In this document: one piece after another, positions 26,440 to 40,901 of the stretch | Layout: each line of letters begins with the position of its first letter | Numbering within the stretch: the first letter of the stretch is position 1 | Notes under the pieces: generated by a model | The model's database searches: none | What the model saw: the letters and a program-made list of their open reading frames with translations, nothing else | Told to the model about the DNA's origin: nothing | Translations under genes and position numbers: made by a program | Assembly: GCF_000317045.1 (NCBI RefSeq) | Contig: NC_019703.1 | Span: 3,604,934 to 3,668,933, forward strand | Source of the DNA: Geitlerinema sp. PCC 7407 | GTDB lineage: Bacteria > Cyanobacteriota > Cyanobacteriia > PCC-7407 | DNA: 64,000 nt | Reading direction: 5' to 3'

Positions 26440-27912
26440 CTAGGGACGACTGAGACGCCGCCGCAGTAGGCGGATCAGGCTGTAGAACAAGATGACGATG
26501 GCGGCAACGGCGATCGCAGAACAAGCGGCGATCGCCAGCAGCCAGATCACGCTCTGCTGCAAGTCAGCCGGTATGCCGCGGCCCAGCAGCCAAGGCAGCC
26601 CCGCGACCAAGCCGAAGGTCAGCAGGGCCACTACCATCAGCCAGATTCCCCGCAGCAGCCGGAGGATCTGGGCGATCGCCAGGATGCCGACTATCCCGCC
26701 AAAAATTCCGGCACTCAGGCCAGAAGGGCCCAGCGTGCTGAGCAGCGCTGAAGCAACCAAGGCCCCCTCGAAGCCCAGAAACCCCGCATGAAACAGCAGC
26801 GCTTGGGCATCGGTTTTCGTTGTTTTGGGCGCTTTGGCCGGGGGTGAGGGCTTGGCAGCGGTCTGAGGGGCGGGCGGCGGGGCGATCGCCCCTGACGTTG
26901 CCGACGCCTGGACGGGAGGAACCGGCGGCGAAGTCGCCGGGCTAGCCGGAGCGGGCGCTCCCAGCGGACCTCGCAAGGCCACCGCCACCTCATGCACAGA
27001 CTGGAAGCGGTCCTTGGGCACGGGCAGCAGCATTCGGTCTAGGACATCGGCAAAGAGCGGACTTACTGAGGCGTAGGACCGCCATTTCCAGGTGTTGTTG
27101 AAGGCATCGTAGAGCTCTTGGGGCTCACGCCCCGTCAGCAGCGTAACGCAGGTCACCGCCAGGGCGTAGAGATCCGTCGAGGGGTATACCTGGCCACCCG
27201 CAACTTGCTCGGGCGGCGCGAAACCCACCGAATAGATTCCCGTAGAGCGCTGGGGCGTGCCGCCCGCTGTCTTGGTGACCTGCTTGACCGCCCCAAAGTC
27301 CAGCAGATACAGCAGGCCATTGCGGTGGCGCATGATATTAGATAGCTTGATGTCCCGGTGAATAATGTGGTGCTCGTGAACGAATTTGAGCACTTTCAGC
27401 ATACTGATCAGGACTTCCAAGGTTTCTTTTTCTGAAAAAGGTCCCCGGGCAGCCAGCTCTTCTTCCATGGTCTGGCCGTCGATAAATTCTTGGACCAGGT
27501 AAAAGAATTCTGCGTTGCCGGAGGGACCACCGGGCACCACCAGCGGGAAAAAGGCGAACAGGTCTGGAATTTGGGGGTGGGCATTGCCGAGCTGCTCGAG
27601 GGCTTCTGCTTCTCGCTCAAAGAGGGACTGGGCGATCGCCCATTGGTCGGGCGACAGATCCACCGACGGCTGAAACTGCTTGACCACGCAAGGCCGCAGA
27701 CTCGGCGTATAGCGATCGATCGCCCCATAGGCCGCCCCAAATCCCCCGCGCCCCAGCAGTTTTTGCGGCAAATAGCGCCCCAGCAGCAGCAGCGGCATCC
27801 CACAAGCTGTGCAGTACTTTTGCGGGACTGTCTTTAGGGTCGTAGCATCATCGAGGTCTGGGCATAGGTTTCGGGGCCGAGGGCACCCAGGCCGGGTGCA
27901 GTAAAGCTCCAT
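26440..27912 (-). CDS. Ser/Thr protein kinase with N-terminal Cys motif and membrane tail
   Basis: A 490-residue kinase. The N-terminus has a four-to-five-Cys cluster (CTRPGC, then C17, then YCTACG), like the zinc-ribbon-type motif of SpkB-class cyanobacterial kinases. The kinase domain (about 45-315) has the Gly loop GRGGFGAAYG, the Lys in VVKQF, the catalytic HRDIKLSN, and DFGAVK. A Pro/Ala/Ser-rich linker (about 318-370) leads to a C-terminal region with about four membrane helices (372-485). The Cys motif may sense redox or metal. The targets are unknown. Confidence 0.9.
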   Translation of the reverse strand: MELYCTRPGCPRPRNLCPDLDDATTLKTVPQKYCTACGMPLLLLGRYLPQKLLGRGGFGAAYGAIDRYTPSLRPCVVKQFQPSVDLSPDQWAIAQSLFEREAEALEQLGNAHPQIPDLFAFFPLVVPGGPSGNAEFFYLVQEFIDGQTMEEELAARGPFSEKETLEVLISMLKVLKFVHEHHIIHRDIKLSNIMRHRNGLLYLLDFGAVKQVTKTAGGTPQRSTGIYSVGFAPPEQVAGGQVYPSTDLYALAVTCVTLLTGREPQELYDAFNNTWKWRSYASVSPLFADVLDRMLLPVPKDRFQSVHEVAVALRGPLGAPAPASPATSPPVPPVQASATSGAIAPPPAPQTAAKPSPPAKAPKTTKTDAQALLFHAGFLGFEGALVASALLSTLGPSGLSAGIFGGIVGILAIAQILRLLRGIWLMVVALLTFGLVAGLPWLLGRGIPADLQQSVIWLLAIAACSAIAVAAIVILFYSLIRLLRRRLSRP

Positions 27913-28008: not shown

Positions 28009-29076
28009 CTAATGATCTGCTTCGAGCTGCACGCCAAAGCTCTGCTTCGCCGCCGTCATTTTGGTCGCCGCAGCGCCCCCATGATTCGGCGCAGATATCG
28101 CCTCTACCGTAGCAGCTTCTGCCCCTGCCTCATCAGCCCCCTCCGCCGAAGCTTGATGAGTCGCAAACAGCGGCAAAATCTCCTGGCTAAAGGCCTCAGC
28201 TGCCTTTGAGCGATAGCGGTTGGGATTGTAGATCACCGACAGCATCCGCTTGACGACCACCTCCTCTACCTTCGCTCGGTACAGCACCCCCATTTGCAGC
28301 TCTCGCTCGATAGCCGAAATCGAAACAAACGCAGCGCCCAGGCCAGACTGCACAGCATTCTTGATCGCCTCAATCGAATTGAGCTCCATTTCGATCTTGA
28401 GGCGGCGGGTCTCAATGCCGCAGCGGGTCAGCACTTGGTCGATCACCTTGCGAATCGTCGATTGAGAATCGAGGGCAATGAACTGAAGTTTATAGAGATC
28501 CTCTTTATGAATTGTTTCTACATTCGCGAGAGGATGGAAGACCGGTAAGATAAGTGCTAGTTCGTCTTCAGCGTAGGGAATAATTTCTAAAGAATCTTGG
28601 AGTTCCGTCGGCACTTCCCCACCAATAATGGCCAGATCGATTTGTCCGTTGGCGACACTCCAGGAGGTGCGTCGGGTCGAGTGAACGTGGAGCTGAACCG
28701 AAACATCAGGGTAGCGCTGCCGAAACAGGCCGATCATGCGTGGCAGCAAGTACGTTCCGGTCGTCTGACTGGCTCCTACAATTAACGTGCCCCCTTGAAG
28801 GTTTTGGAGATCTTCGATGGCGCGACAGGTTTCTTGGCACAGGGTGAGGATTTTTTCCCCATAGCTGAGCAGCAGATGTCCGGCTTCGGTCAGTTGTGCT
28901 CGTCGCCCACCGCGGTCAAATAGCGGCACGTCTAGCTGTCGCTCTAGGTTCTGGACTTGGAGACTCACAGCTGGCTGGGAGACATACAAGCTGTCGGCAG
29001 CGCGCTTGAAGCTCCCTTCGCTCGCGATCGCCTTAAGGATTCGTAATTGATCTAAGGTAAACGGAAGATCGGACAT
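28009..29076 (-). CDS. rbcR: LysR-family regulator RbcR (Ycf30-like)
   Basis: A 355-residue LysR-type regulator. The start ATG at 29076 gives [20 protein letters not shown], the usual N-terminus of RbcR. The winged helix is at about 5-62, with the recognition segment [16 protein letters not shown]; the effector domain runs from about 92 to 300. RbcR controls RuBisCO and other carbon-fixation genes in cyanobacteria and algae. A roughly 45-residue Ala/Glu-rich C-terminal tail is unusual in length and probably disordered. It is divergent from the roadblock-like gene (209 bp between) and lies just upstream of the ferredoxin group and the ndh genes. Confidence 0.87.
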
Positions 29077-29285
29077 AATTGCTAAACCTGAAAGGAGAAA
29101 AAAGCCAAACGGCAGCAAGCAATGTGATGGAAAGTTTGATAGATAGAGACTTTATATGGCGGGAGCTAAGCACTTTGGTGAACTTTGGAAAACAGGGCGC
29201 TCGACTCGGGGGCAATGGGTGCGCTCAACCTGGGCTGTCTCATAAACTGCGCTGCAATTTATCAATTTAACGTTTAGAACAGCTT

Positions 29286-30149
29286 ATGAAGCGGGAGGTC
29301 GTCCAGGATTTTCTGAATTTACCAGGAATTGCAGGCGTTGCCCTAATGGATGGGCGATCGCGGCCTTACTTTTGCGGCGTTGACCAGACCCTGAACTTCC
29401 AGCAAAAAGAAGCGCTTGCCCAGGGAATCCGACAGGTTGTGGATACAACGCCAGCGGGGTTTGAGTCTTTTGAGTTTCAGTTCACTGGCCATCAAGTCTA
29501 TATCTACAAGTTAGACCAAGGGATCATCCTCTTGGTTCTCACTCGCGACGGGTTGGTCTATCGAGACTATCTTCAGGCGATCGCCAAGCTCAAGACCGCC
29601 CTCCAAGAAGACGTCAGTACTGCGATCGCGACTTTCCGGCTCCTAGCAGGCAACATTTCGCTCACCGGCCAAAACTACTGGAAACAGCGTAGTGATAGTC
29701 CCAGCGACATTCCGCTCAGCCCATCTGCCATTCCCACCAACTTTTCCAACGGCACCAAGCCCCCCGCACCTGAGCCATCCTCCCCAGAACCGACCGAAAA
29801 TGCCAATAACACTATTCTGCTCAAAGAGTTTTTGATTGCCCTCAATCACCTCAGCCAATTCACCACCCAGTATCTGGGAACCGCAGTCATCGTGAACTAC
29901 TGGAAAGCGAGCCAGCCCGCCGCCGCATGGGCCGGCCACTTCCAGATCGATCGTACTGGCCAGATTAGCTTTGTTGGCCCCGATTCCCAGCGCCTCAGCC
30001 AGCCGACCTCTCCGGAAGAATTTCAGTGGCTGCGGGAATGGGTCAAGGCCTTTATTGAGCGGTGCTCTCGGGTGATTCGTGACTTTCCGGCTTTGATCGA
30101 GCAGACGGGCCTGACGGATTCAGAGCGACAGCTTTTGCTGGGGCACTAG
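29286..30149 (+). CDS. Protein with roadblock-like N-terminal domain
   Basis: A 287-residue protein. Residues 1-100 have the roadblock/LC7-like pattern: a helix (VVQDFLNLPG), a strand pair IAGVALMDGRSRPYF, a helix, and the strands QVYIYKLDQGIILLVLT. A Ser/Pro-rich linker (about 140-175) precedes a C-terminal alpha/beta region (180-287). No enzyme motif is visible. It begins a plus-strand group with a ferredoxin and a phycobiliprotein-like protein, which places it with PSII-assembly type genes; it may correspond to one of the unnamed members of the slr0144-slr0152 set. That link is inferred from context. Confidence 0.7.
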   Translation: MKREVVQDFLNLPGIAGVALMDGRSRPYFCGVDQTLNFQQKEALAQGIRQVVDTTPAGFESFEFQFTGHQVYIYKLDQGIILLVLTRDGLVYRDYLQAIAKLKTALQEDVSTAIATFRLLAGNISLTGQNYWKQRSDSPSDIPLSPSAIPTNFSNGTKPPAPEPSSPEPTENANNTILLKEFLIALNHLSQFTTQYLGTAVIVNYWKASQPAAAWAGHFQIDRTGQISFVGPDSQRLSQPTSPEEFQWLREWVKAFIERCSRVIRDFPALIEQTGLTDSERQLLLGH

Positions 30150-30215
30150 GAGAGCGGGCTGGTAACGTTAAATTCTGTTTAGCTGATCGTTCTTTTCTAT
30201 TAGTTGCTGATAGCC

Positions 30216-30698
30216 ATGGTCAAAATTGTTAAGTTAGAGCCCATCGGACAAGAGACAGAAGTCGAGACCAATGGCAATTTGCTGTCGGTTTTGCTCTCTG
30301 AGGATCTAGATGTTTTGAAAGAATGTGGCGGGCGCGGGATGTGCGCAACGTGCCACGTTTACATCAAAACCGGGATGGAGTGCCTGTCTCCGATGAATCG
30401 CCGGGAGCAGCGCACGCTAGAAATCATTACTTCCTGCAAAGCCAACTCGCGTCTTGCCTGTCAGTCTCGGATTTTGGGCAATGGGGTTGTGGTGGAGCTG
30501 CCTCCGGGTATGTACGTGCGATCGCTCCAGGATATCGAGGCGCTGATTGGTCGGCGAGCTGAGCAAAATCTGCTGCACCCGGTGACTGGTCAGACGCTGG
30601 TGGAGGCGGGCAAGCTGATTACGCGCTCGGTCCTCAAGCAGCTCGAAAACACCAGCTTCAAGGTTGGCGAGTATTTCTCTCAAACGAGCGACTCTTAG
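30216..30698 (+). CDS. 2Fe-2S ferredoxin (slr0148-like)
   Basis: A 160-residue protein with start ATG 30216 (MVKIVKLEPIGQ). The ferredoxin domain has Cys in the spacing C-x5-C-x2-C (ECGGRGMCATC) and a fourth Cys about 35 residues later (RLACQ), the adrenodoxin/bacterial type rather than the photosynthetic C-x4 type. A C-terminal extension of about 55 residues follows. In Synechocystis an equivalent long ferredoxin is encoded in the PSII-assembly operon (slr0148). It lies 66 bp after the roadblock-like gene. Confidence 0.87.
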   Translation: MVKIVKLEPIGQETEVETNGNLLSVLLSEDLDVLKECGGRGMCATCHVYIKTGMECLSPMNRREQRTLEIITSCKANSRLACQSRILGNGVVVELPPGMYVRSLQDIEALIGRRAEQNLLHPVTGQTLVEAGKLITRSVLKQLENTSFKVGEYFSQTSDS

Positions 30699-33124: not shown

Positions 33125-35200
33125 CTAGGCGATTCCCGAGAAGATCACGAGGCCTAGGACTGCAACAAACACAATCAGGGCGTAGAACTGGGCGCGACCG
33201 TTTTCGAAGTATTTCAGGCCTTCGCCGGTCACCAGGGTGACGAAGCCCGCAAGGTTGACCAAGCCATCTACGACTTTGGAGTCAACTTCTAGGACCTGAC
33301 GGGCCAAGCGACGGCTGCCTTTGACAAAGAGAACGTCGTTGATCTCATCGAGGTACCACTTGTTGCGGGAGAGGTTGTAGAGGGGCTTGATTTTGTTGGC
33401 GATCGCGCCAGGATCGATCTTGCCGCGCAGATACATCAGCGACGCCAGAGTAATCCCAATCAGCGCAATGCCCACCGAGTTGCCTGCCATGATCAGGAAC
33501 TCAGTCCAGTTCACCGCCTCAGCCTCCGCGACATGGGCGATCGCCTCCGTCGGCGGATGCACAAACGCCTCAAAGTAATTGCCAAAGGGCGTTCCCAAAA
33601 GGCCAATCAGCATCGACGGCACCGCCAGCACCACCAGCGGCAGCGTCATCGTCCAGGGAGACTCATGGGGAGAATCACTGTGGTGATGATCCTGATCGCC
33701 GTGCTCCGCCTCATGCTCCGCCATCAGCTCCTGGGGATTCATCGCCCCCGGCCCAAAAGCATAGCCCTTGGCCTGAGCATTCTCCGCCAGCAGAGACTTG
33801 CGCAGTGACGTCTGCAGCCCCCGGAAGCCACCTTCAAAGGTCATGAAGTACATGCGGAACATGTAGAAAGCCGTGATCCCAGCCGTCAGCCAGCCCACAA
33901 GCCAAAGACCCGGATGAACCTCAAAGGCCGAGCTCAAAATCTCATCCTTTGACCAGAACCCCGCAAAGGGCGGAATTCCCGAAATCGCCAGCGTCCCAAT
34001 CAAAAAGGTCGTCGCCGTCACCGGCATATACTTGCGCAATCCGCCCATCAGGCGCATGTCCTGCGCCAGCACCGGATTGTGGCCGACCACAGCTTCCATC
34101 CCGTGGATCACCGACCCCGAGCCCAAGAAGAGCATCGCCTTGAAATAGGCATGGGTCATCAGGTGAAACAGACCCGCACTGTAGGCCCCAGCCCCCATGG
34201 CCATCATCATGTAGCCGAGCTGGGACATCGTCGAGTAGGCGAGCCCTTTCTTGATGTCGTTTTGCGTGATGGCGATCGACGCCCCCAGAAACGCCGTAAA
34301 CGCTCCCGTCCAGGCAATCACCGTCATCGCAGTTTGGAAACCCTCGATGACCGGGAACATACGGGCCACCAGGAAAATCCCGGCCGCCACCATGGTTGCA
34401 GCGTGGATGAGGGCCGAAATGGGAGTCGGACCTTCCATGGCGTCGGGCAGCCAGACATGAAGGGGAAACTGGGCCGACTTCGCCACGGGTCCCAAAAACA
34501 CCAGCAGCACGAAGAGGGTCGCCAAACCCGCACTCAGAGAACCGGAGCTCACCAGTTCCTGAAGACGCTCACCGATAACGGGGAAGTCAAAACTACCCGT
34601 CGCCCAGTAGAGCGCCAGAATGCCGAGCAGAAGACCAAAGTCCCCTACGCGGTTGGTCACAAATGCCTTTTGGCAAGCATCTGCCGCCGCCTTGCGGTCG
34701 TACCAAAAACCAATGAGCAGGTACGAACACATCCCCACCAGTTCCCAGAAGATGTAGATCTGCACCAGGTTTGGACTGACGACCAGACCGAGCATGGAGG
34801 AACTGAATAGGCTCAAGTACGCATAGAAGCGCACGTAGCTGGGATCGTGAGCCATGTAGCCGTCGGTGTAGATCATCACCAAAAAAGCGACGGTGGTCAC
34901 GATCACCAGCATGACGGCTGACAGGTGATCGATGGCATAGCCCATGGTGAGCTGGAAGTCACCCGCTGCGGCCCACTCGATCATGCGATCGTAGGGAGCG
35001 TGGCCCTGTACTTGACTCCACAGCAAACCAAAGGACATGAACATTGCAGCGCCAATCAAGGACACTACAAGTCCAGCGCTGGCTTGACGCAGACGGTTAG
35101 TCGCCTCATTGAAGGAGATCAGGCCTATCCCGAGCAGCGTGGCCCCAACCAATGGCAGGACGGGAATCAGCCAGGCGTACTGATATAACAGTTCCATCAC
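33125..35200 (-). CDS. ndhF: NDH-1 subunit NdhF (chain 5)
   Basis: A 691-residue antiporter-like subunit with about 15-16 membrane helices and the long lateral helix near the C-terminus. Motifs include YIFWELVGMCSYLLIGFW, with the Glu, and the FPLHVWLPDAMEGPTP segment. A His/Asp-rich loop (about residues 498-515, HGDQDHHHSDSPHES) lies between late helices. With ndhD it forms a two-gene operon for the NDH-1L complex in respiration and cyclic electron flow around PSI. The promoter should lie in the 535-bp region upstream. Confidence 0.94.
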   Translation of the reverse strand: MMELLYQYAWLIPVLPLVGATLLGIGLISFNEATNRLRQASAGLVVSLIGAAMFMSFGLLWSQVQGHAPYDRMIEWAAAGDFQLTMGYAIDHLSAVMLVIVTTVAFLVMIYTDGYMAHDPSYVRFYAYLSLFSSSMLGLVVSPNLVQIYIFWELVGMCSYLLIGFWYDRKAAADACQKAFVTNRVGDFGLLLGILALYWATGSFDFPVIGERLQELVSSGSLSAGLATLFVLLVFLGPVAKSAQFPLHVWLPDAMEGPTPISALIHAATMVAAGIFLVARMFPVIEGFQTAMTVIAWTGAFTAFLGASIAITQNDIKKGLAYSTMSQLGYMMMAMGAGAYSAGLFHLMTHAYFKAMLFLGSGSVIHGMEAVVGHNPVLAQDMRLMGGLRKYMPVTATTFLIGTLAISGIPPFAGFWSKDEILSSAFEVHPGLWLVGWLTAGITAFYMFRMYFMTFEGGFRGLQTSLRKSLLAENAQAKGYAFGPGAMNPQELMAEHEAEHGDQDHHHSDSPHESPWTMTLPLVVLAVPSMLIGLLGTPFGNYFEAFVHPPTEAIAHVAEAEAVNWTEFLIMAGNSVGIALIGITLASLMYLRGKIDPGAIANKIKPLYNLSRNKWYLDEINDVLFVKGSRRLARQVLEVDSKVVDGLVNLAGFVTLVTGEGLKYFENGRAQFYALIVFVAVLGLVIFSGIA

Positions 35201-35735
35201 GCGTGCCTACATTTAGAGTTCTTCAAATTTTGGGCAAAATCGTTAACCATTGTGGCACATAGCCCTTGGAGATTGCTCTTCTGACGGGGCGATCCTGAAA
35301 TGTCAGGAATGCCGAGCATTTTTGAGCTTCAAATCTTAGGCTGAGCTAGCGAAAGTCCTTTTCTTTCGATAGTCTAGCGGCATCAATCAGACAGTGAGTG
35401 TTTACTCGCGCTTTTTTTAAGTATCGAAACATATCTCTATTTTGAACAGAAATCGAAGCAGTTGAAAGGCTGCTAGGCTCTCTTTGCTTTGAGACCGTTC
35501 GTGCTATCTGCCAGGGTGAAGAGAATTGGCAGACACCGGAGGTTTCCAGGGAGGGCTTGGGTTGCGGCGAGCGATCGGCTCCCGCGAAAGCCCTAGGGGA
35601 TAGTGTAGGGGGTTTTGGGGATCGCTAGCTTCTTGAAAAAGACTCAAATAGAGATCTTTGAGGCGCAAAAGACACAAAAAGGGCGATCGCCTTTCCGGAG
35701 AGGCGATCGCCCTTGAGAGCTGGCTCTGCTCTGGC
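35201..35735. other. ndhF upstream region
   Basis: A 535-bp region that carries the ndhF promoter side (35201-35480, AT-rich) and the terminator of the upstream thioredoxin operon (35675-35714). No gene found. Confidence 0.5.
35675..35714 (-). terminator. Strong terminator of the thioredoxin-ended operon
   Basis: A 14-bp perfect stem containing a HIP1 site in each arm (AAGGGCGATCGCCT at 35679-35692 and AGGCGATCGCCCTT at 35701-35714, loop of 8). On the minus strand it is followed by TTT TTG, completing an intrinsic terminator 21 bp after the thioredoxin stop. Confidence 0.88.
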
Positions 35736-36080
35736 CTAGGCAGAAATGCGTTCTGTCATCAGGTTTTCAAGCAATCGACGCAGGTCATCCCGACCCTTGA
35801 AGCCATCTAGGCGGTGGCTCACTCGGCCATTCTCAAAGAACAACAGGGTGGGCAAATTGGTTAGACGATAGGTGTTCGCAAGTTTCAGATTTTCGTCGGC
35901 ATTGATCCCGATCAGCTTAACTTGACCGGCCCACTCAGCCTGAAAAGCCAGCAAAAGCGGATCGATGAACCGACACAGACCACACCAAGGCGCCCAAAAA
36001 TGGACTAGCACGGGAACCGGAGAGGCTAATACTTCTTGCTTAAAATCTTTTTCGCTAATAGAAGACACTGAAAACACCAT
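35736..36080 (-). CDS. Thioredoxin with CGLC active site
   Basis: A 114-residue thioredoxin. The active site WCGLC (Cys33, Cys36) differs from the usual WCGPC by Leu for Pro. The cis-proline loop NLPTLLFF and the following FENGRVSHRLDGF strand are normal. The Leu should shift redox potential or partner range; a cyanobacterial TrxC group is known with such changes. It is the last gene of a likely seven-gene minus-strand transcript (start 42 bp after nnrU) that includes PSII-assembly genes. Confidence 0.9.
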   Translation of the reverse strand: MVFSVSSISEKDFKQEVLASPVPVLVHFWAPWCGLCRFIDPLLLAFQAEWAGQVKLIGINADENLKLANTYRLTNLPTLLFFENGRVSHRLDGFKGRDDLRRLLENLMTERISA

Positions 36081-36122
36081 GATCCCTCAGATTTTATTAT
36101 TCAGTATCTGGTTGGGATCATG

Positions 36123-36833
36123 CTACCAGGGGACGTAGCTTGTCACCTGAACCATCCACGGATGGGCCCACCAGATCAAGCCGACGAAGGCAATCACCCC
36201 CAGATAGGCGGGGCGTAGAAACTCCTTTAATTCTAGGGTTTGACGGCCTTGCCAGATGGCGAGGAACGGAATCACCGAGGTGCGAGCTTTGGCCGCGTCG
36301 AAGGCTTCGCCGTAGCGCGCTTTGAGGCGGCGATCGCCGTGCCAGACGCTAAACAAATGATGCAAGATCAGGCCCGTCGAGGTGACCACCATAAAGGAGG
36401 TGCCCAACCACAGCGTATGGGCCACACACCAGATGATCTGGCCGACCATTTGCGGATGACGGGTGATGCGGATAATGCCGGTCTCGTAGAGACGCACCTG
36501 GGGCTTTTCGATCGCGGCGATCTCGAGCAGATTGAAGGTCGCCGGATAGAGAAAGAAGAAAGACAGAAAAGACAGACTCCAGATGACAGCCGGAATCCAC
36601 GGCAAGCCTTGGAGGTTCCAGAGCTGCAGGCCGTCATAGCGATGGTTGAAGAAATAGATAATCAGCGTCAGGGCCAGGGGAAGGCTCACCAAGGCAAAGA
36701 GAATTCGGTAAAGGCGAGGACCAATGCGCTGCTCCCCCCAGGGACGGAGGGCTGCTAGGCCGCTATGGGCGATCGCAAACCCCACTAAAAGGCCAAATAT
36801 CACAAAGTGGCTGGGAGTGAGCCAGTCAAGCAT
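36123..36833 (-). CDS. NnrU / Z-ISO family membrane protein
   Basis: A 236-residue membrane protein with about six to seven helices. The conserved segment GIIRITRHPQMVGQIIW (about 118-134) contains the His shared by NnrU proteins and plant 15-cis-zeta-carotene isomerase (Z-ISO), where it is a haem ligand. Another conserved His pair lies at IAHSGL and GLILHHLFSVWHG. In a cyanobacterium a carotenoid-isomerase role is plausible. It follows the kinase gene by 24 bp and precedes the thioredoxin gene by 42 bp. Confidence 0.82.
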   Translation of the reverse strand: MLDWLTPSHFVIFGLLVGFAIAHSGLAALRPWGEQRIGPRLYRILFALVSLPLALTLIIYFFNHRYDGLQLWNLQGLPWIPAVIWSLSFLSFFFLYPATFNLLEIAAIEKPQVRLYETGIIRITRHPQMVGQIIWCVAHTLWLGTSFMVVTSTGLILHHLFSVWHGDRRLKARYGEAFDAAKARTSVIPFLAIWQGRQTLELKEFLRPAYLGVIAFVGLIWWAHPWMVQVTSYVPW

Positions 36834-36857
36834 GACACCGAAGTTCCGTGGAAAGGG

Positions 36858-38717
36858 TTAGAAGAGTAGGTCGATCTCTAATTGTCGCAGATCGACGGTG
36901 TACAGCATACTCTGAGAGCCCTCGACGGTGGCAAGCATCAGGCCAGCGGGGTGAATGGGGGCGATCGCCGTTGGATTTGGCGGTCCAGCAATCCAGCCCA
37001 CCTCACGCCCCACCTCATCCAGCAGCAAAATCTCCCCGGCCCGGCTCACCAAAATGTAGCCCCACGTCATCGCCGCCATGAAAGCCGGCACCCAGGGAGT
37101 GGACAAACGCAAAATGCGAAAGGGCTTGAGGTCGAGAATCACCAAAGACTGGGGCTGGTTTTGCTCCGTTGCCATCAGGCGGTAGGGCTTGGGTGTGAGG
37201 ACCAGGCGATCGATCAAGAGGGGCGTCGACAAGGTGCCCAGATGCTGGCCGCGGCGACTAAAGCCTTCAAAGGTAGTCCCCACAGGGCGATCGCCCTCTC
37301 GCTTGGTGGCCATCGCAATGCCGTGATGACGATCGACCGCCAGTAGCTGCTGGGGCGATCGCTTGAGGGCCAGATGATGGCGGTGATTGAGCTTGGGGCC
37401 GTCGTAGATCGTCAGGTCCGCTGCGCTCTGGTCGGGGCGGGGGCTGGCCATTGCCAACCAGCGACCCTGGGCTTCCCAGGCCGTCAGGGCCTTGGGCTCT
37501 AGCCACACCCGCCGGTTCACGGTCCAGCCTTGAGCCGGATCGCGGCTGATGCTGTAGGCCGCCTGCTGGGTCAAGGCCAAAATGCCTTGTTCCTGGGGCG
37601 CGATCGCCTCCACCACCTCCGGCACATTGATTTGCTGCGTCCGGCCTCCCGCCTCAGACCAGATGCCCTGGGGAAACTGCTGGACCGAGAGCATCGGCCC
37701 CGTAGCCCAGTAAATGCGCTCCCCAATGGGCGTTGCTGGCCCGGACGGCACCAGGCGGGGCTGGTCTACCACAATCTGCTGGACTGGCAGCCACTGCACC
37801 TGCTCCTGAGCCGCCTGGAAGGGCTGGAGCGATCGCGCCGGCTGGGGCCGAAACAAATTTCCAGGATCTTCTAGATCCATCAGGCCATCGGCGATCGCCG
37901 CTGCCTGGAGCGCCTGGGACATCTCCAGCGCCGACGGAAAGCGCCGTCCGGGAAGCTTTTGGAGCGATCGCCGCACCACCGCCGCAATTTCTGTCGGCAT
38001 CTCCGGCGGAATCACCAGCGACTGATTGAGATGGGCCGACATTAAATCCGACGGCGGCCCCGAAAACGGACGCCGTCCCAGCAGCAGCTCAAACAGCAGC
38101 ACCCCCACCGCATAGAGATCCGACGCCGGAGAATACTGGCCATAGAAGCGCTCTGGGGCCATGTAGGCAGGCGATCCCGTATTGTTCGAGCCCTCCAGGG
38201 TCGCGATTTCTTGGCTCAGCCGCGCGATCCCAAAATCCGTAATCTGGGCCAGCCAGCCCGTCGGCGTCACCCGCAGCAGAACATTCTCAGGCTTGATGTC
38301 ACAGTGGACAATGCCCTGAGCGTGGGCGTGGGCCAGACCCGCCAGCACATCCAGCACCAGACGCACCACGTGGACCGGTTGCAGCGATCGCTCCTCCTGC
38401 ATCAGATCCCGCAGCGTCCCGCCCTCGCAATAGTCCATCACCAGGTAGCGCCGAGTCTGCACATGCTCCAGCGCCTGACACGTCACAATATTCGTGTGGC
38501 GCAGGCTCAGCAGAAACCGCAGCTCTCGCAAGAACTTGTGAGTCGGGAAACGCCGGCGATCGAGCTCTTTGAGCGCCACCAGGCGCCCCGTCTTGCGGTG
38601 GATCGCACAATACACCCGGCCAAACTGACCTTGGCCGACGAGTCCCAGCAGCCGGTACTTCGAGCGCTTCAGATCTTGAGTGCCGCCATGGGACACCACC
38701 GCTACGCTTGGGCACAC
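36858..38717 (-). CDS. spkG: Ser/Thr protein kinase, SpkG-like
   Basis: A 619-residue protein. The kinase domain (about 20-280) has the Gly loop GQGQFGRVY, the Lys in VALKEL, the catalytic HCDIKPEN, and DFGIA, with APE at YMAPERF. The C-terminal half (about 340-619) is rich in beta strands with repeated W/G patterns, suggesting a beta-propeller-like domain; no membrane helix is evident. The gene order after two V4R genes matches the slr0144-slr0152 operon, which ends with spkG. It starts with GTG at 38717, overlapping the V4R stop by 16 bp, so translation is probably coupled. An internal ATG is not better placed. Confidence 0.82.
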   Translation of the reverse strand: MCPSVAVVSHGGTQDLKRSKYRLLGLVGQGQFGRVYCAIHRKTGRLVALKELDRRRFPTHKFLRELRFLLSLRHTNIVTCQALEHVQTRRYLVMDYCEGGTLRDLMQEERSLQPVHVVRLVLDVLAGLAHAHAQGIVHCDIKPENVLLRVTPTGWLAQITDFGIARLSQEIATLEGSNNTGSPAYMAPERFYGQYSPASDLYAVGVLLFELLLGRRPFSGPPSDLMSAHLNQSLVIPPEMPTEIAAVVRRSLQKLPGRRFPSALEMSQALQAAAIADGLMDLEDPGNLFRPQPARSLQPFQAAQEQVQWLPVQQIVVDQPRLVPSGPATPIGERIYWATGPMLSVQQFPQGIWSEAGGRTQQINVPEVVEAIAPQEQGILALTQQAAYSISRDPAQGWTVNRRVWLEPKALTAWEAQGRWLAMASPRPDQSAADLTIYDGPKLNHRHHLALKRSPQQLLAVDRHHGIAMATKREGDRPVGTTFEGFSRRGQHLGTLSTPLLIDRLVLTPKPYRLMATEQNQPQSLVILDLKPFRILRLSTPWVPAFMAAMTWGYILVSRAGEILLLDEVGREVGWIAGPPNPTAIAPIHPAGLMLATVEGSQSMLYTVDLRQLEIDLLF

Positions 38718-39364
38718 AGGCTTTGCATGATCACGGCATGATCTTGCTTTTGCTCCACCAGCGCCTCCGCTGGCCGCACCCGCGGCTCTAGCCCCAGCAC
38801 AAAGCGATTGCAGTCAGCGCCCTGGGACTCACAGGTCGTTTGCACACAGTGAAGCTCGCGCCCCGTCAGCTGACTAAAGAAGGTGCTCAGCACCCCCGCC
38901 TCCAGGTAGCAAACCGGGTGGGGGCTGTCGAGCGCATGGCGCGCAAAGGGAGAATTCCAGATCTGGATCACCAAAAATCCATTCTTTTGGTAGCTCTGAT
39001 CCAGGTCGATCTTGCCCCAGCCGTGGGTCACCCAGCACTGCTGCAACGACTGCAAAAACTCGATCATCGGCATATCCGCAACTGCCTGGTTGTAGTAGCT
39101 CGAGAGCTCCTCGCAAAAGCGACTGTAGAAGCTCTTGCCCCACCAGCGGCCACAGTTGAACAGCACAAGACGCGAGGCCATCCCGGTTTCGCGATCGAGG
39201 CCCGCATAGATCGCCCTAACAAGAGTCTCTGGCATCGCCAGCAGGCGATCGCCCCGGCGGTTTTCGAGGAGGCCGAGCTCTAGATCGCTGCGAACATAGG
39301 CATCCGCCGCAAAGTAATTGCCAGGAATTCGATTATCAACAAGGAGATCGGCGACAGAAATCAT
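38702..39364 (-). CDS. V4R-domain protein (slr0147-like)
   Basis: A 220-residue protein with a 4-vinyl-reductase (V4R) domain in the C-terminal two thirds. The characteristic small-molecule-binding end is seen: PVCYLEAGVLSTFFSQL followed by CVQTTCESQGADCNRF (Cys pattern, about 173-188). V4R domains bind tetrapyrrole-like or hydrocarbon ligands or metal. The position is fourth in the PSII-assembly gene order, equivalent to slr0147. It begins 27 bp after the phycobiliprotein-like gene and overlaps the kinase gene. Confidence 0.85.
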   Translation of the reverse strand: MISVADLLVDNRIPGNYFAADAYVRSDLELGLLENRRGDRLLAMPETLVRAIYAGLDRETGMASRLVLFNCGRWWGKSFYSRFCEELSSYYNQAVADMPMIEFLQSLQQCWVTHGWGKIDLDQSYQKNGFLVIQIWNSPFARHALDSPHPVCYLEAGVLSTFFSQLTGRELHCVQTTCESQGADCNRFVLGLEPRVRPAEALVEQKQDHAVIMQSLCAQA

Positions 39365-39391
39365 AGGACAATTTCAGTAAGATAGGGCAGC

Positions 39392-39853
39392 TCAGGACTG
39401 AGCCAGTAAATCTTGGACCACTTTGATGAGCGGCTGAATGAGCGCTGCCTGTTGCGGCGGCAGACGCTGATCGAGCTGCTGGCTCAGTTGGCGATAGAGA
39501 GATGTATCAATGGCGTGGGTATCGTAGACCTTGCTGGTCTGATCGAGCCATCCGCGAACGCGATCTTGGAGAAAAGATTCGTCGTTGAGCAGCATGGCCA
39601 TCGCGCAGTAGCGCAGGGCCAGCAAGCCGTTTTTGATGCTGCGCTCGAGTTTGTCGACGGGCACTTGGGGAAATTCGCGCTGGAGCTGATCAGCAATGGG
39701 CTGCATGATCTGGATTTCGTGATCGCGCAGGGTGCGGTAGACATCCAGGCGGCTGGGCACAGAGTCCACGTACTGACTGAGGACATTCAGCTCTTCCGGC
39801 ATCAGATAGCGACTTTCGGCGTCTTCAAAGAGCGCTTCAATTTGCTTGTGCAT
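39392..39853 (-). CDS. Phycobiliprotein-like globin without bilin cysteine (paralog B, slr0146-like)
   Basis: A 153-residue protein of the phycobilisome globin family. It shows ESRYLMPEELNVLSQYV at the start, the core SIKNGLLALRYCAMAMLLND (about 73-92), and a final helix pair. At the chromophore-Cys position (eight residues before LRY) there is Ser, so it should not carry bilin. It is third in the order of the slr0144-slr0152 operon of Synechocystis and likely helps PSII assembly. It is distantly related to the protein at 30856-31335. Confidence 0.83.
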   Translation of the reverse strand: MHKQIEALFEDAESRYLMPEELNVLSQYVDSVPSRLDVYRTLRDHEIQIMQPIADQLQREFPQVPVDKLERSIKNGLLALRYCAMAMLLNDESFLQDRVRGWLDQTSKVYDTHAIDTSLYRQLSQQLDQRLPPQQAALIQPLIKVVQDLLAQS

Positions 39854-39909
39854 AACAACCTGGGCAGTTAGATGAGAAAACGACGGTGATCGAGAATCCC
39901 AACCTCACC

Positions 39910-40221
39910 CTAGAAGAGGCTGGAAAAGTCTTCTAGGGTGAGGTTGCTGGCGGGAGAGCTGTCGTCGAAGCTGATATCTGCGATCGCCGATGGGGGGGCG
40001 ATCGCGCCTCCATCCCACGGAATCGCGCCGAGGAACTGGCTCACGGGCAGGGACAGATCCAGCGACGTCACGGCCCCGTGGCGCACGGCTTGCTTGATGT
40101 CTTGGATCTGCTGGGACTGATTGTCCCAGTTGATGCCCTGGAAGAATTCCTGGACCGAGGCGGTTAGCCACGCTTCGGTGCGCGGAGTGCCTCCGTTTTT
40201 TGTTGCTAGCGTCCCAACCAT
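39910..40221 (-). CDS. Small PSII-operon protein (slr0145 position)
   Basis: A 103-residue protein with no known domain. The N-terminal part TEAWLTASVQEFFQGINWDN (about 15-34) may form an amphipathic helix. The C-terminus has an acidic, hydrophobic block NLTLEDFSSLF. It sits between the two V4R-group genes, starting 2 bp after the first V4R stop, exactly where slr0145 lies in Synechocystis. Role unknown; an assembly-factor role is inferred from place. Confidence 0.72.
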   Translation of the reverse strand: MVGTLATKNGGTPRTEAWLTASVQEFFQGINWDNQSQQIQDIKQAVRHGAVTSLDLSLPVSQFLGAIPWDGGAIAPPSAIADISFDDSSPASNLTLEDFSSLF

Positions 40222-40223
40222 AT

Positions 40224-40901
40224 CTACCCCAGCCGGTCTCCGGCGCGTAACCGTTTTTCGATGTCGCGGGCGGTGGCGCCTTCATTGAGCCAGAAGTTGG
40301 CTGCGTCGATGCGATCTTGCCCGCCGAGCAAGAATTTGCAGTAGGTTTCTCCCATGGAGTAGCACTGGATCTCGATGCAGCTGAGCTGCTTTTTGATCAG
40401 CTCTGTGAAGAATCCAGCGAAGAGACCGGCATAGATGTAGCACACGGGTTTGCCAACATCGCCGAGGGTGCGGGCAACGGCGGAGTCAAACAGGTTGATG
40501 AACATAAATCCCTGTTTGCGATCGCCCATATCGACTTCCCAGCGCCCCCAGCCCTGGGAGGTAAAGGGCCACCACCAGGTCTCTAGGAGAAACATCAAGT
40601 TGGTTTGACGAATGCTGCGATCGAACTCTTGCTCAAACCACTTGGCGAAGAAAAAGGCGTCCCGCTGGCCCCACTCGCAGCCAATGGTGTACATGATGGC
40701 CGCCGAGGCATCGCCGACTTCTTCTTCGAGCCCCTCGACTAGACCAATGATGAAGTCCTCACTGGTGAGCACGTTCTGGCTGTTGTTCCAGTCTGTGAGG
40801 GTGCCGTGCTCCAGGTCAAAGTGAAAGAAATCCCGAAATCCGTAGTGGTTGTGCTTTTTGGGGTATTTCCGCTGGGGGGTAGATTGATTTGCAATCACCA
40901 T
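40224..40901 (-). CDS. V4R-domain protein (slr0144-like)
   Basis: A 225-residue protein with a V4R domain. The C-terminal ligand-binding part shows PVCYIYAGLFAGFFTEL and IQCYSMGETYCKFLLGG (about 179-195) with two Cys in the typical spacing. The N-terminal region has a conserved HYGFRDFFHFD segment. It is first in the operon equivalent to slr0144-slr0152, which is needed for efficient PSII assembly. The promoter should lie in the region from 40902 to 41455. Confidence 0.87.
   Translation of the reverse strand: MVIANQSTPQRKYPKKHNHYGFRDFFHFDLEHGTLTDWNNSQNVLTSEDFIIGLVEGLEEEVGDASAAIMYTIGCEWGQRDAFFFAKWFEQEFDRSIRQTNLMFLLETWWWPFTSQGWGRWEVDMGDRKQGFMFINLFDSAVARTLGDVGKPVCYIYAGLFAGFFTELIKKQLSCIEIQCYSMGETYCKFLLGGQDRIDAANFWLNEGATARDIEKRLRAGDRLG

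What the first reader, a model, noticed from the sequence alone, without database searches (positions are those of the whole stretch)
35675..40901. PSII-assembly gene set extended by a Z-ISO/NnrU gene and a CGLC thioredoxin
Seven minus-strand genes with gaps of -16 to 56 bp: V4R, small protein, phycobiliprotein-like, V4R, SpkG-like kinase, NnrU/Z-ISO, thioredoxin, then a strong terminator. The first four and the kinase follow the order of slr0144-0147 and slr0152 in Synechocystis, where the operon supports PSII assembly. The added carotenoid-isomerase-like and redox proteins suggest a link of PSII assembly to pigment supply and thiol control.
Basis: partly seen in the sequence, partly recalled or inferred. 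Interest (0 to 1): 0.66.

Follow-up and report, generated by a model that had tools for sequence, protein, structure and literature searches.

The report
Photosynthesis gene neighbourhood: pap, Z-ISO, TrxC
Seven genes in a row in this cyanobacterium join a photosystem-assembly gene set to a carotenoid isomerase and an odd thioredoxin; the join recurs in many other cyanobacteria as part of an old gene neighbourhood, but the idea that the thioredoxin exists to control the carotenoid enzyme is not supported, because lineages that lost that enzyme keep the thioredoxin in the same place.

Summary
Seven minus-strand genes (40901 to 35736; gaps -16 to +56 bp) are followed by a strong terminator: V4R, small protein, phycobiliprotein-like, V4R, SpkG-type kinase, NnrU-family (Z-ISO) and WCGLC thioredoxin (TrxC).

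The last two are not a local addition. TrxC lies directly downstream of Z-ISO in 74 of 95 genomes holding both (26 families; adjacency published in 2018). The V4R block lies within 9 kb of Z-ISO in 22 of 124 genomes (7 families). The commonest full order is rbcR-like LysR | ferredoxin - phycobiliprotein-like - V4R block - kinase - Z-ISO - TrxC - ndhF - ndhD. The window holds the whole set, with the V4R-to-ndhD block inverted. Flanking genes do not travel with it.

Z-ISO tracks CrtQ almost perfectly across 145 genomes; every genome lacking both has CrtI instead. That also weakens 'thiol control of pigment supply': 12 such CrtI genomes keep TrxC, five of them between kinase and ndhF. The only Z-ISO cysteine is conserved with or without TrxC. 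Seven genomes have the V4R block on the opposite strand to Z-ISO-TrxC, so one operon is not general.

Best reading: old photosynthesis modules kept side by side, co-directional here; functional coupling unproven.

The parts
40224..40901 (-). V4R-domain protein A (slr0144-like)
   Evidence: Pfam V4R 6e-21; 74-91% identity in most relatives
39910..40221 (-). small protein (slr0145-like position), no family
   Evidence: ORF 2 bp after V4R-A; recurs at this place in relatives at 29-48% identity
39392..39853 (-). phycobiliprotein-like globin (slr0146-like; no CXRD bilin motif in the sequence)
   Evidence: Pfam Phycobilisome 1e-9; sequence
38702..39364 (-). V4R-domain protein B (slr0147-like)
   Evidence: Pfam V4R 1e-17
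36858..38717 (-). SpkG-type Ser/Thr kinase with conserved C-terminal half
   Evidence: Pkinase 6e-51; end-to-end 39% alignment with the kinase of a complete slr0144-0152-like operon
36123..36833 (-). Z-ISO (15-cis-zeta-carotene isomerase, NnrU family)
   Evidence: Pfam NnrU 8e-46; H23, H126, H139, H159, H224 invariant, C136 in 146/153; co-occurs with CrtQ
35736..36080 (-). TrxC, WCGLC thioredoxin-like protein
   Evidence: Thioredoxin 3e-23; grouped apart from canonical cyanobacterial thioredoxins
35679..35714 (-). intrinsic-terminator-like hairpin
   Evidence: 14-pair stem plus T run; z -3.4
33125..35200 (-). ndhF (NDH-1 subunit 5), conserved neighbour downstream
   Evidence: NCBIfam NF005626, 1233 bits
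31469..33088 (-). ndhD (NDH-1 subunit 4), conserved neighbour
   Evidence: NCBIfam NF002713, 998 bits
30835..31335 (+). second phycobiliprotein-like gene (slr0149-like)
   Evidence: Pfam Phycobilisome 1e-19
30204..30698 (+). 2Fe-2S ferredoxin (slr0148 / Fd5-like)
   Evidence: 64% identity to the ferredoxin of the complete operon in L354; Fer2
29286..30149 (+). conserved 287-aa protein without family, upstream of the ferredoxin in relatives too
28009..29118 (-). LysR regulator, probably RbcR/PacR; conserved left border
   Evidence: LysR domains; position in relatives; RbcR name inferred

Best explanation
The seven genes are two old photosynthesis modules standing head to tail and, in this genome, probably transcribed together. 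Module 1 is most of the pap (slr0144-0152) set: two V4R proteins, a small protein, a phycobiliprotein-like globin and the SpkG-type kinase; its ferredoxin and second globin lie nearby at 30.2-31.3 kb. Module 2 is Z-ISO followed by TrxC. Both belong to a wider conserved neighbourhood with an rbcR-like regulator on one side and ndhF-ndhD on the other. Proposed working: V4R/globin/ferredoxin proteins handle cofactors or intermediates while photosystems are built, with SpkG acting on the ferredoxin; Z-ISO isomerises tri-cis-zeta-carotene so that beta-carotene can be made without light; TrxC adjusts pigment and NDH-1 status through partners still unknown. Linkage lets supply of cofactors, photosystem building and NDH-1 be expressed together when light or carbon changes. 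Shown: gene identities, linkage and its borders, Z-ISO/CrtQ co-occurrence, persistence of TrxC without Z-ISO. Inferred: co-transcription here, and any functional coupling between the modules.
For: Neighbourhood maps in 124 Z-ISO genomes and 80 named loci: kinase directly upstream of Z-ISO (26-164 bp) in 16 genomes of 7 families; V4R block within 9 kb in 22; TrxC directly downstream in 74 of 95; ndhF downstream in 43; LysR divergent directly upstream of Z-ISO in 31 genomes that have no pap block there. Sharp borders. Z-ISO present with CrtQ in 123 genomes, both absent in 20, one mismatch each way. In five genomes with CrtI and no Z-ISO the order V4R - kinase - TrxC is kept, with ndhF next in four of them and beyond the contig end in the fifth. 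Literature: slr0144-0152 supports PSII (PMC9145668, PMC4853703); SpkG needed for Fd5 phosphorylation (PMC11863333); slr1599 is Z-ISO (PMC9505123); trxC deletion raises and overexpression lowers carotenoids (PMC6262485).
Against: No RNA data. Most genomes that have both the pap block and Z-ISO do not have them linked (54 apart, 24 linked). In seven genomes the blocks lie on opposite strands. Presence of Z-ISO and TrxC is only weakly associated (95 both, 29 Z-ISO only, 13 TrxC only, 8 neither). Linkage may be inherited history only.
Confidence: 0.6

Rival explanations
1. Linkage by history only: ancient gene order that has decayed unevenly, with no functional coupling between the pap-SpkG block and Z-ISO-TrxC.
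For: Block linked in only 24 of 78 genomes that have both; orientation varies; each module is lost independently.
Against: Neighbouring genes outside the block do not persist, while block genes do across several families; proximity is kept after inversion in family f24.
Confidence: 0.3
2. One reading: TrxC controls Z-ISO (and so PSII pigment supply) by thiol exchange within one operon.
For: Widespread Z-ISO - TrxC adjacency; carotenoid phenotype of trxC strains (PMC6262485); C136 is kept in 95 of 95 TrxC genomes and lost only in TrxC-less ones (7 of 29).
Against: TrxC kept in 12 CrtI genomes without Z-ISO; Z-ISO without TrxC in 29 genomes; after correction for kinship C136 and TrxC are not associated, and six of the seven losses carry a Cys three residues earlier; Z-ISO here has one Cys, in the middle of a predicted helix (127-143); TrxC is inactive in classical assays and deleting trxC raises carotenoids, opposite to loss of a needed activator (PMC6262485).
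Confidence: 0.12
3. TrxC's real partner is NDH-1: it tunes NdhF or NDH-1L, and Z-ISO is a bystander between TrxC and the regulator.
For: TrxC stays next to ndhF where Z-ISO is gone (L244, L245, L246, L248, L250); oxidised plastoquinone phenotype and the same proposal in PMC6262485.
Against: In more than 40 genomes TrxC follows Z-ISO without ndhF within 2.5 kb (some cut by contig ends); picocyanobacterium-like genomes have Z-ISO - ndhF without TrxC.
Confidence: 0.25

Closest known systems
pap / slr0144-slr0152 operon of Synechocystis (Wegener et al. 2008, as cited in PMC9145668 and PMC4853703)
   Same: V4R - small - PBP-like - V4R order and an SpkG-type kinase following
   Different: ferredoxin and second PBP-like gene are outside the row and on the other strand; the second small ferredoxin and a Slr0151-like TPR gene are not in the row; Z-ISO and TrxC follow the kinase
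trxC-nnrU pair of cyanobacteria (PMC6262485)
   Same: same two genes side by side, WCGLC active site
   Different: that paper links the pair to ndh genes in Nostocales; in the sections read nothing on the pap-SpkG block or on NnrU being Z-ISO
Z-ISO, Slr1599 (PMC9505123)
   Same: NnrU family, conserved His residues and Cys, co-occurs with the CrtP/CrtQ pathway
   Different: activity not tested here; the Slr1599 locus tag lies far from slr0144-0152, so unlinked there (inferred from numbering)
V4R/BBAG/Fe-S clusters descended from pre-PcyA clusters (PMC10151467)
   Same: two V4R, globin(s), 2Fe-2S protein
   Different: neither globin of the window has the CXRD bilin motif; SpkG, Z-ISO and TrxC linkage not described in the passages read

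Membership tests
Z-ISO (15-cis-zeta-carotene isomerase) | NnrU-family membrane protein with the His and Cys residues required or implicated in Slr1599/maize Z-ISO | tested here: met
   Pfam NnrU 8e-46; H23 and H139 invariant, C136 present; correspondence to Slr1599 H29/H145 is by motif, no plant sequence was aligned (PMC9505123)
Z-ISO (15-cis-zeta-carotene isomerase) | occurs with the poly-cis pathway (CrtP, CrtQ) | tested here: met
   own CrtQ 910 bits and CrtP 901 bits; 123 genomes with both Z-ISO and CrtQ, 20 with neither
Z-ISO (15-cis-zeta-carotene isomerase) | isomerase activity with heme b | not testable with these tools
   needs complementation of a delta-slr1599 strain
TrxC | thioredoxin fold with WCG[LVI]C active site | tested here: met
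   Pfam Thioredoxin; WCGLCR in the sequence
TrxC | falls outside the canonical WCGPC thioredoxins | tested here: met
   14 canonical thioredoxins form one group, support 97; short alignment, many open forks
TrxC | no insulin or FBPase activity | not testable with these tools
   biochemistry
pap (slr0144-0152) operon | V4R - small - PBP-like - V4R in this order, followed by an SpkG-type kinase | tested here: met
pap (slr0144-0152) operon | slr0148-0151 genes (ferredoxin, PBP-like, ferredoxin, TPR) between V4R-B and kinase | tested here: not met
   V4R-B and kinase overlap by 16 bp; ferredoxin and PBP-like found at 30.2-31.3 kb; only generic TPR matches for Slr0151-like
pap (slr0144-0152) operon | single transcript supporting PSII assembly | not testable with these tools
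   needs RNA and mutants
bilin-binding globin (BBAG) | CXRD bilin-attachment motif (present in some members only) | tested here: not met
   absent from both window globins by sequence; non-covalent binding not excluded

The most novel reading that the evidence does not exclude
The rbcR - pap - spkG - Z-ISO - trxC - ndhF - ndhD neighbourhood is a co-regulated photosynthesis-biogenesis unit in which the SpkG kinase and TrxC coordinate light-independent carotenoid supply, photosystem assembly and NDH-1, with TrxC acting on a partner other than Z-ISO.
Probability: 0.2. Interest if true: 0.7.

Novelty: new variant of a known kind. Interest (0 to 1): 0.45.

Why it matters
It ties three little-understood factors (V4R/pap proteins, SpkG, TrxC) to one conserved neighbourhood with a likely regulator of carbon fixation and NDH-1, and natural gene loss argues against one simple hypothesis (TrxC as dedicated Z-ISO reductase). 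Genomes that have CrtI in place of the CrtP/Z-ISO/CrtQ route but kept TrxC are a ready-made test bed for what TrxC does.

Tried and rejected
Rejected: NnrU in the denitrification sense (tracks CrtQ instead). Rejected: chance adjacency. Tested and not supported: loss of Z-ISO C136 following loss of TrxC; raw counts 0/95 vs 7/29, but only 3-4 independent contrasts and no significance. Rejected: that Z-ISO-adjacent thioredoxins with WCGPC are replacements by canonical Trx; they fall outside the canonical group. Uninformative: PDB fold search of the Z-ISO model gave no match under E 0.001, best partial likenesses to ICMT and sterol reductases among others. Direction of change (pap block inserted between LysR and Z-ISO, or excised) could not be decided; the Z-ISO tree is poorly resolved (12 changes between linked and apart). 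L354 could not be named, so correspondence to slr gene numbers rests on gene order and family, not on alignment with Synechocystis sequences.
Full report
OBSERVATION. The seven ORFs exist at the stated coordinates and strand, with gaps of 2, 56, 27, -16, 24 and 42 bp. Pfam confirms V4R, Phycobilisome, V4R, Pkinase, NnrU and Thioredoxin; the 103-aa protein has no family. A 14-pair hairpin with a T run ends the row at 35714-35679 (z -3.4). Neither of the last two gaps holds a terminator-like site, and promoter-like matches are no more than expected. The genome is a single 4.68 Mb contig with no other member of its family in the held set searched.

IDENTITIES. The kinase aligns over its whole length (18-616, 39%) with the kinase that ends a complete V4R - small - PBP - V4R - ferredoxin - PBP - ferredoxin - TPR - kinase row in L354, so it is SpkG-type, not just any Ser/Thr kinase. 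The NnrU protein keeps the His residues of Z-ISO in all 153 sequences aligned and Cys136 in 146. Across 145 genomes Z-ISO and CrtQ are both present in 123 and both absent in 20; the two mismatches are G006 (no CrtQ found) and G085 (no Z-ISO found, but its TrxC starts 200 bases from a contig end, so an upstream Z-ISO would be off the contig). All 20 genomes without both have a CrtI above the curated cut-off; seven Z-ISO genomes also have one. The thioredoxin has WCGLC and stands apart from 14 canonical thioredoxins.

NEIGHBOURHOOD. I fetched regions of up to 17-19 kb around Z-ISO in 123 other genomes, plus 80 named V4R loci, and mapped the genes. TrxC follows Z-ISO on the same strand within 700 bp in 74 of 95 genomes that have both, in 26 families. 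The V4R block is within 9 kb of Z-ISO in 22 genomes (15 co-directional, 7 on the opposite strand). The kinase is directly upstream of Z-ISO in 16 genomes of 7 families. In one genome (L174) kinase - Z-ISO - TrxC - ndhF - ndhD stays together while the V4R block stands 6 kb away on the other strand. The fullest order, as in L144, L152, L274 and L295, is LysR(-) | 287-aa protein - ferredoxin - PBP-like - V4R - small - PBP-like - V4R - kinase - Z-ISO - TrxC - ndhF - ndhD (+). In 31 genomes without the pap block at that place, LysR stands divergent directly upstream of Z-ISO, including all 13 picocyanobacterium-like genomes (f2), which lack TrxC and have Z-ISO - ndhF - ndhD. The window contains the full set between 28.0 and 40.9 kb, but V4R-to-ndhD is inverted relative to LysR and the ferredoxin/PBP pair. 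As a control, 39 window ORFs were searched in the same regions: those outside about 26-41 kb recur in 0-2 regions, rarely 6-9.

THE THIOL-CONTROL IDEA. Four results speak against TrxC being there for Z-ISO. (a) In family f11 (five genomes) Z-ISO, CrtP and CrtQ are absent and CrtI is present, yet V4R - kinase - TrxC stand in the usual order, followed by ndhF wherever the contig reaches that far; in all, 12 CrtI genomes outside f14 (presumed Gloeobacterales, an inference) keep TrxC. (b) 29 Z-ISO genomes lack TrxC (TrxC presence was judged by me E-values and adjacency, so borderline cases are possible). (c) The only Cys of this Z-ISO, C136, is present in 95 of 95 TrxC genomes and 22 of 29 others; the losses fall in two families, six of the seven with a Cys three residues earlier, and there is no association once kinship is allowed for. 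(d) An AlphaFold model (pLDDT 87, pTM 0.83) puts C136 and H139 in the middle of helix 127-143, which makes contact with a soluble thioredoxin unlikely (inference from secondary structure; no coordinates were measured). Published work adds that TrxC lacks classical activities and that its loss raises, not lowers, carotenoids (PMC6262485). The same paper already reported the trxC-nnrU adjacency and a link to ndhFM in Nostocales; a text search for nnrU with thioredoxin and cyanobacteria returned only that paper. The identity NnrU = Z-ISO came later (PMC9505123).

MECHANISM AND NOVELTY. The pap set supports PSII in Synechocystis (PMC9145668, PMC4853703), SpkG is needed for phosphorylation of ferredoxin 5 (PMC11863333), and the window keeps that ferredoxin's likely orthologue nearby. 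The LysR gene at the border is most likely RbcR/PacR, a regulator of carbon fixation and photosynthesis genes (PMC12052932); this name is inferred from family and position. I propose adjacent modules for cofactor supply, photosystem building and NDH-1 that profit from common regulation, with TrxC acting on a partner not yet known. Only the genomics is shown. The pieces and one adjacency are published; the joined neighbourhood, its sharp borders, and the persistence of TrxC after Z-ISO loss are what this analysis adds, as far as the library searched shows.

Noticed in passing
G010, G014, G044, G045, G058, G061, G069, G070, G080, G092, G100, G102, G133, G140: These genomes, outside the presumed Gloeobacterales (f14), lack Z-ISO, CrtQ and CrtP and have CrtI instead. 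Two CrtI forms occur: one intact over 1-495, one with an insert near profile position 67 that is shared with f14. A 2025 review states that CrtI is found only in Gloeobacter violaceus (PMC11857680). Matching contig lengths tie G014 to 'Leptolyngbyaceae cyanobacterium clean351' and G044 to 'Synechococcales cyanobacterium RM1_1_8'.
   Followed up: partly
window 29286-30149 (+): Conserved 287-aa protein without Pfam or NCBIfam match, between the LysR gene and the ferredoxin wherever found; sometimes in two copies (L244-L247, L170).
   Followed up: no
L121, L122, L123, L126, L127, L132, L186, L189, L243: Z-ISO-adjacent TrxC relatives with a canonical WCGPC active site, contrary to the published WCG[LVI]C rule; they fall outside the canonical thioredoxin group.
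   Followed up: partly
L133 (G094): Remnant of the pap block: only V4R-A and the small protein remain, 594 bp upstream of Z-ISO.
   Followed up: no
window 26440-27912 (-): A second Ser/Thr kinase with a 4-Cys prefix lies next to the LysR gene here and in many relatives.
   Followed up: no
G027, G036, G039, G053, G098, G117, G120: Genomes with both the CrtQ/Z-ISO route and a CrtI-family protein above cut-off.
   Followed up: no
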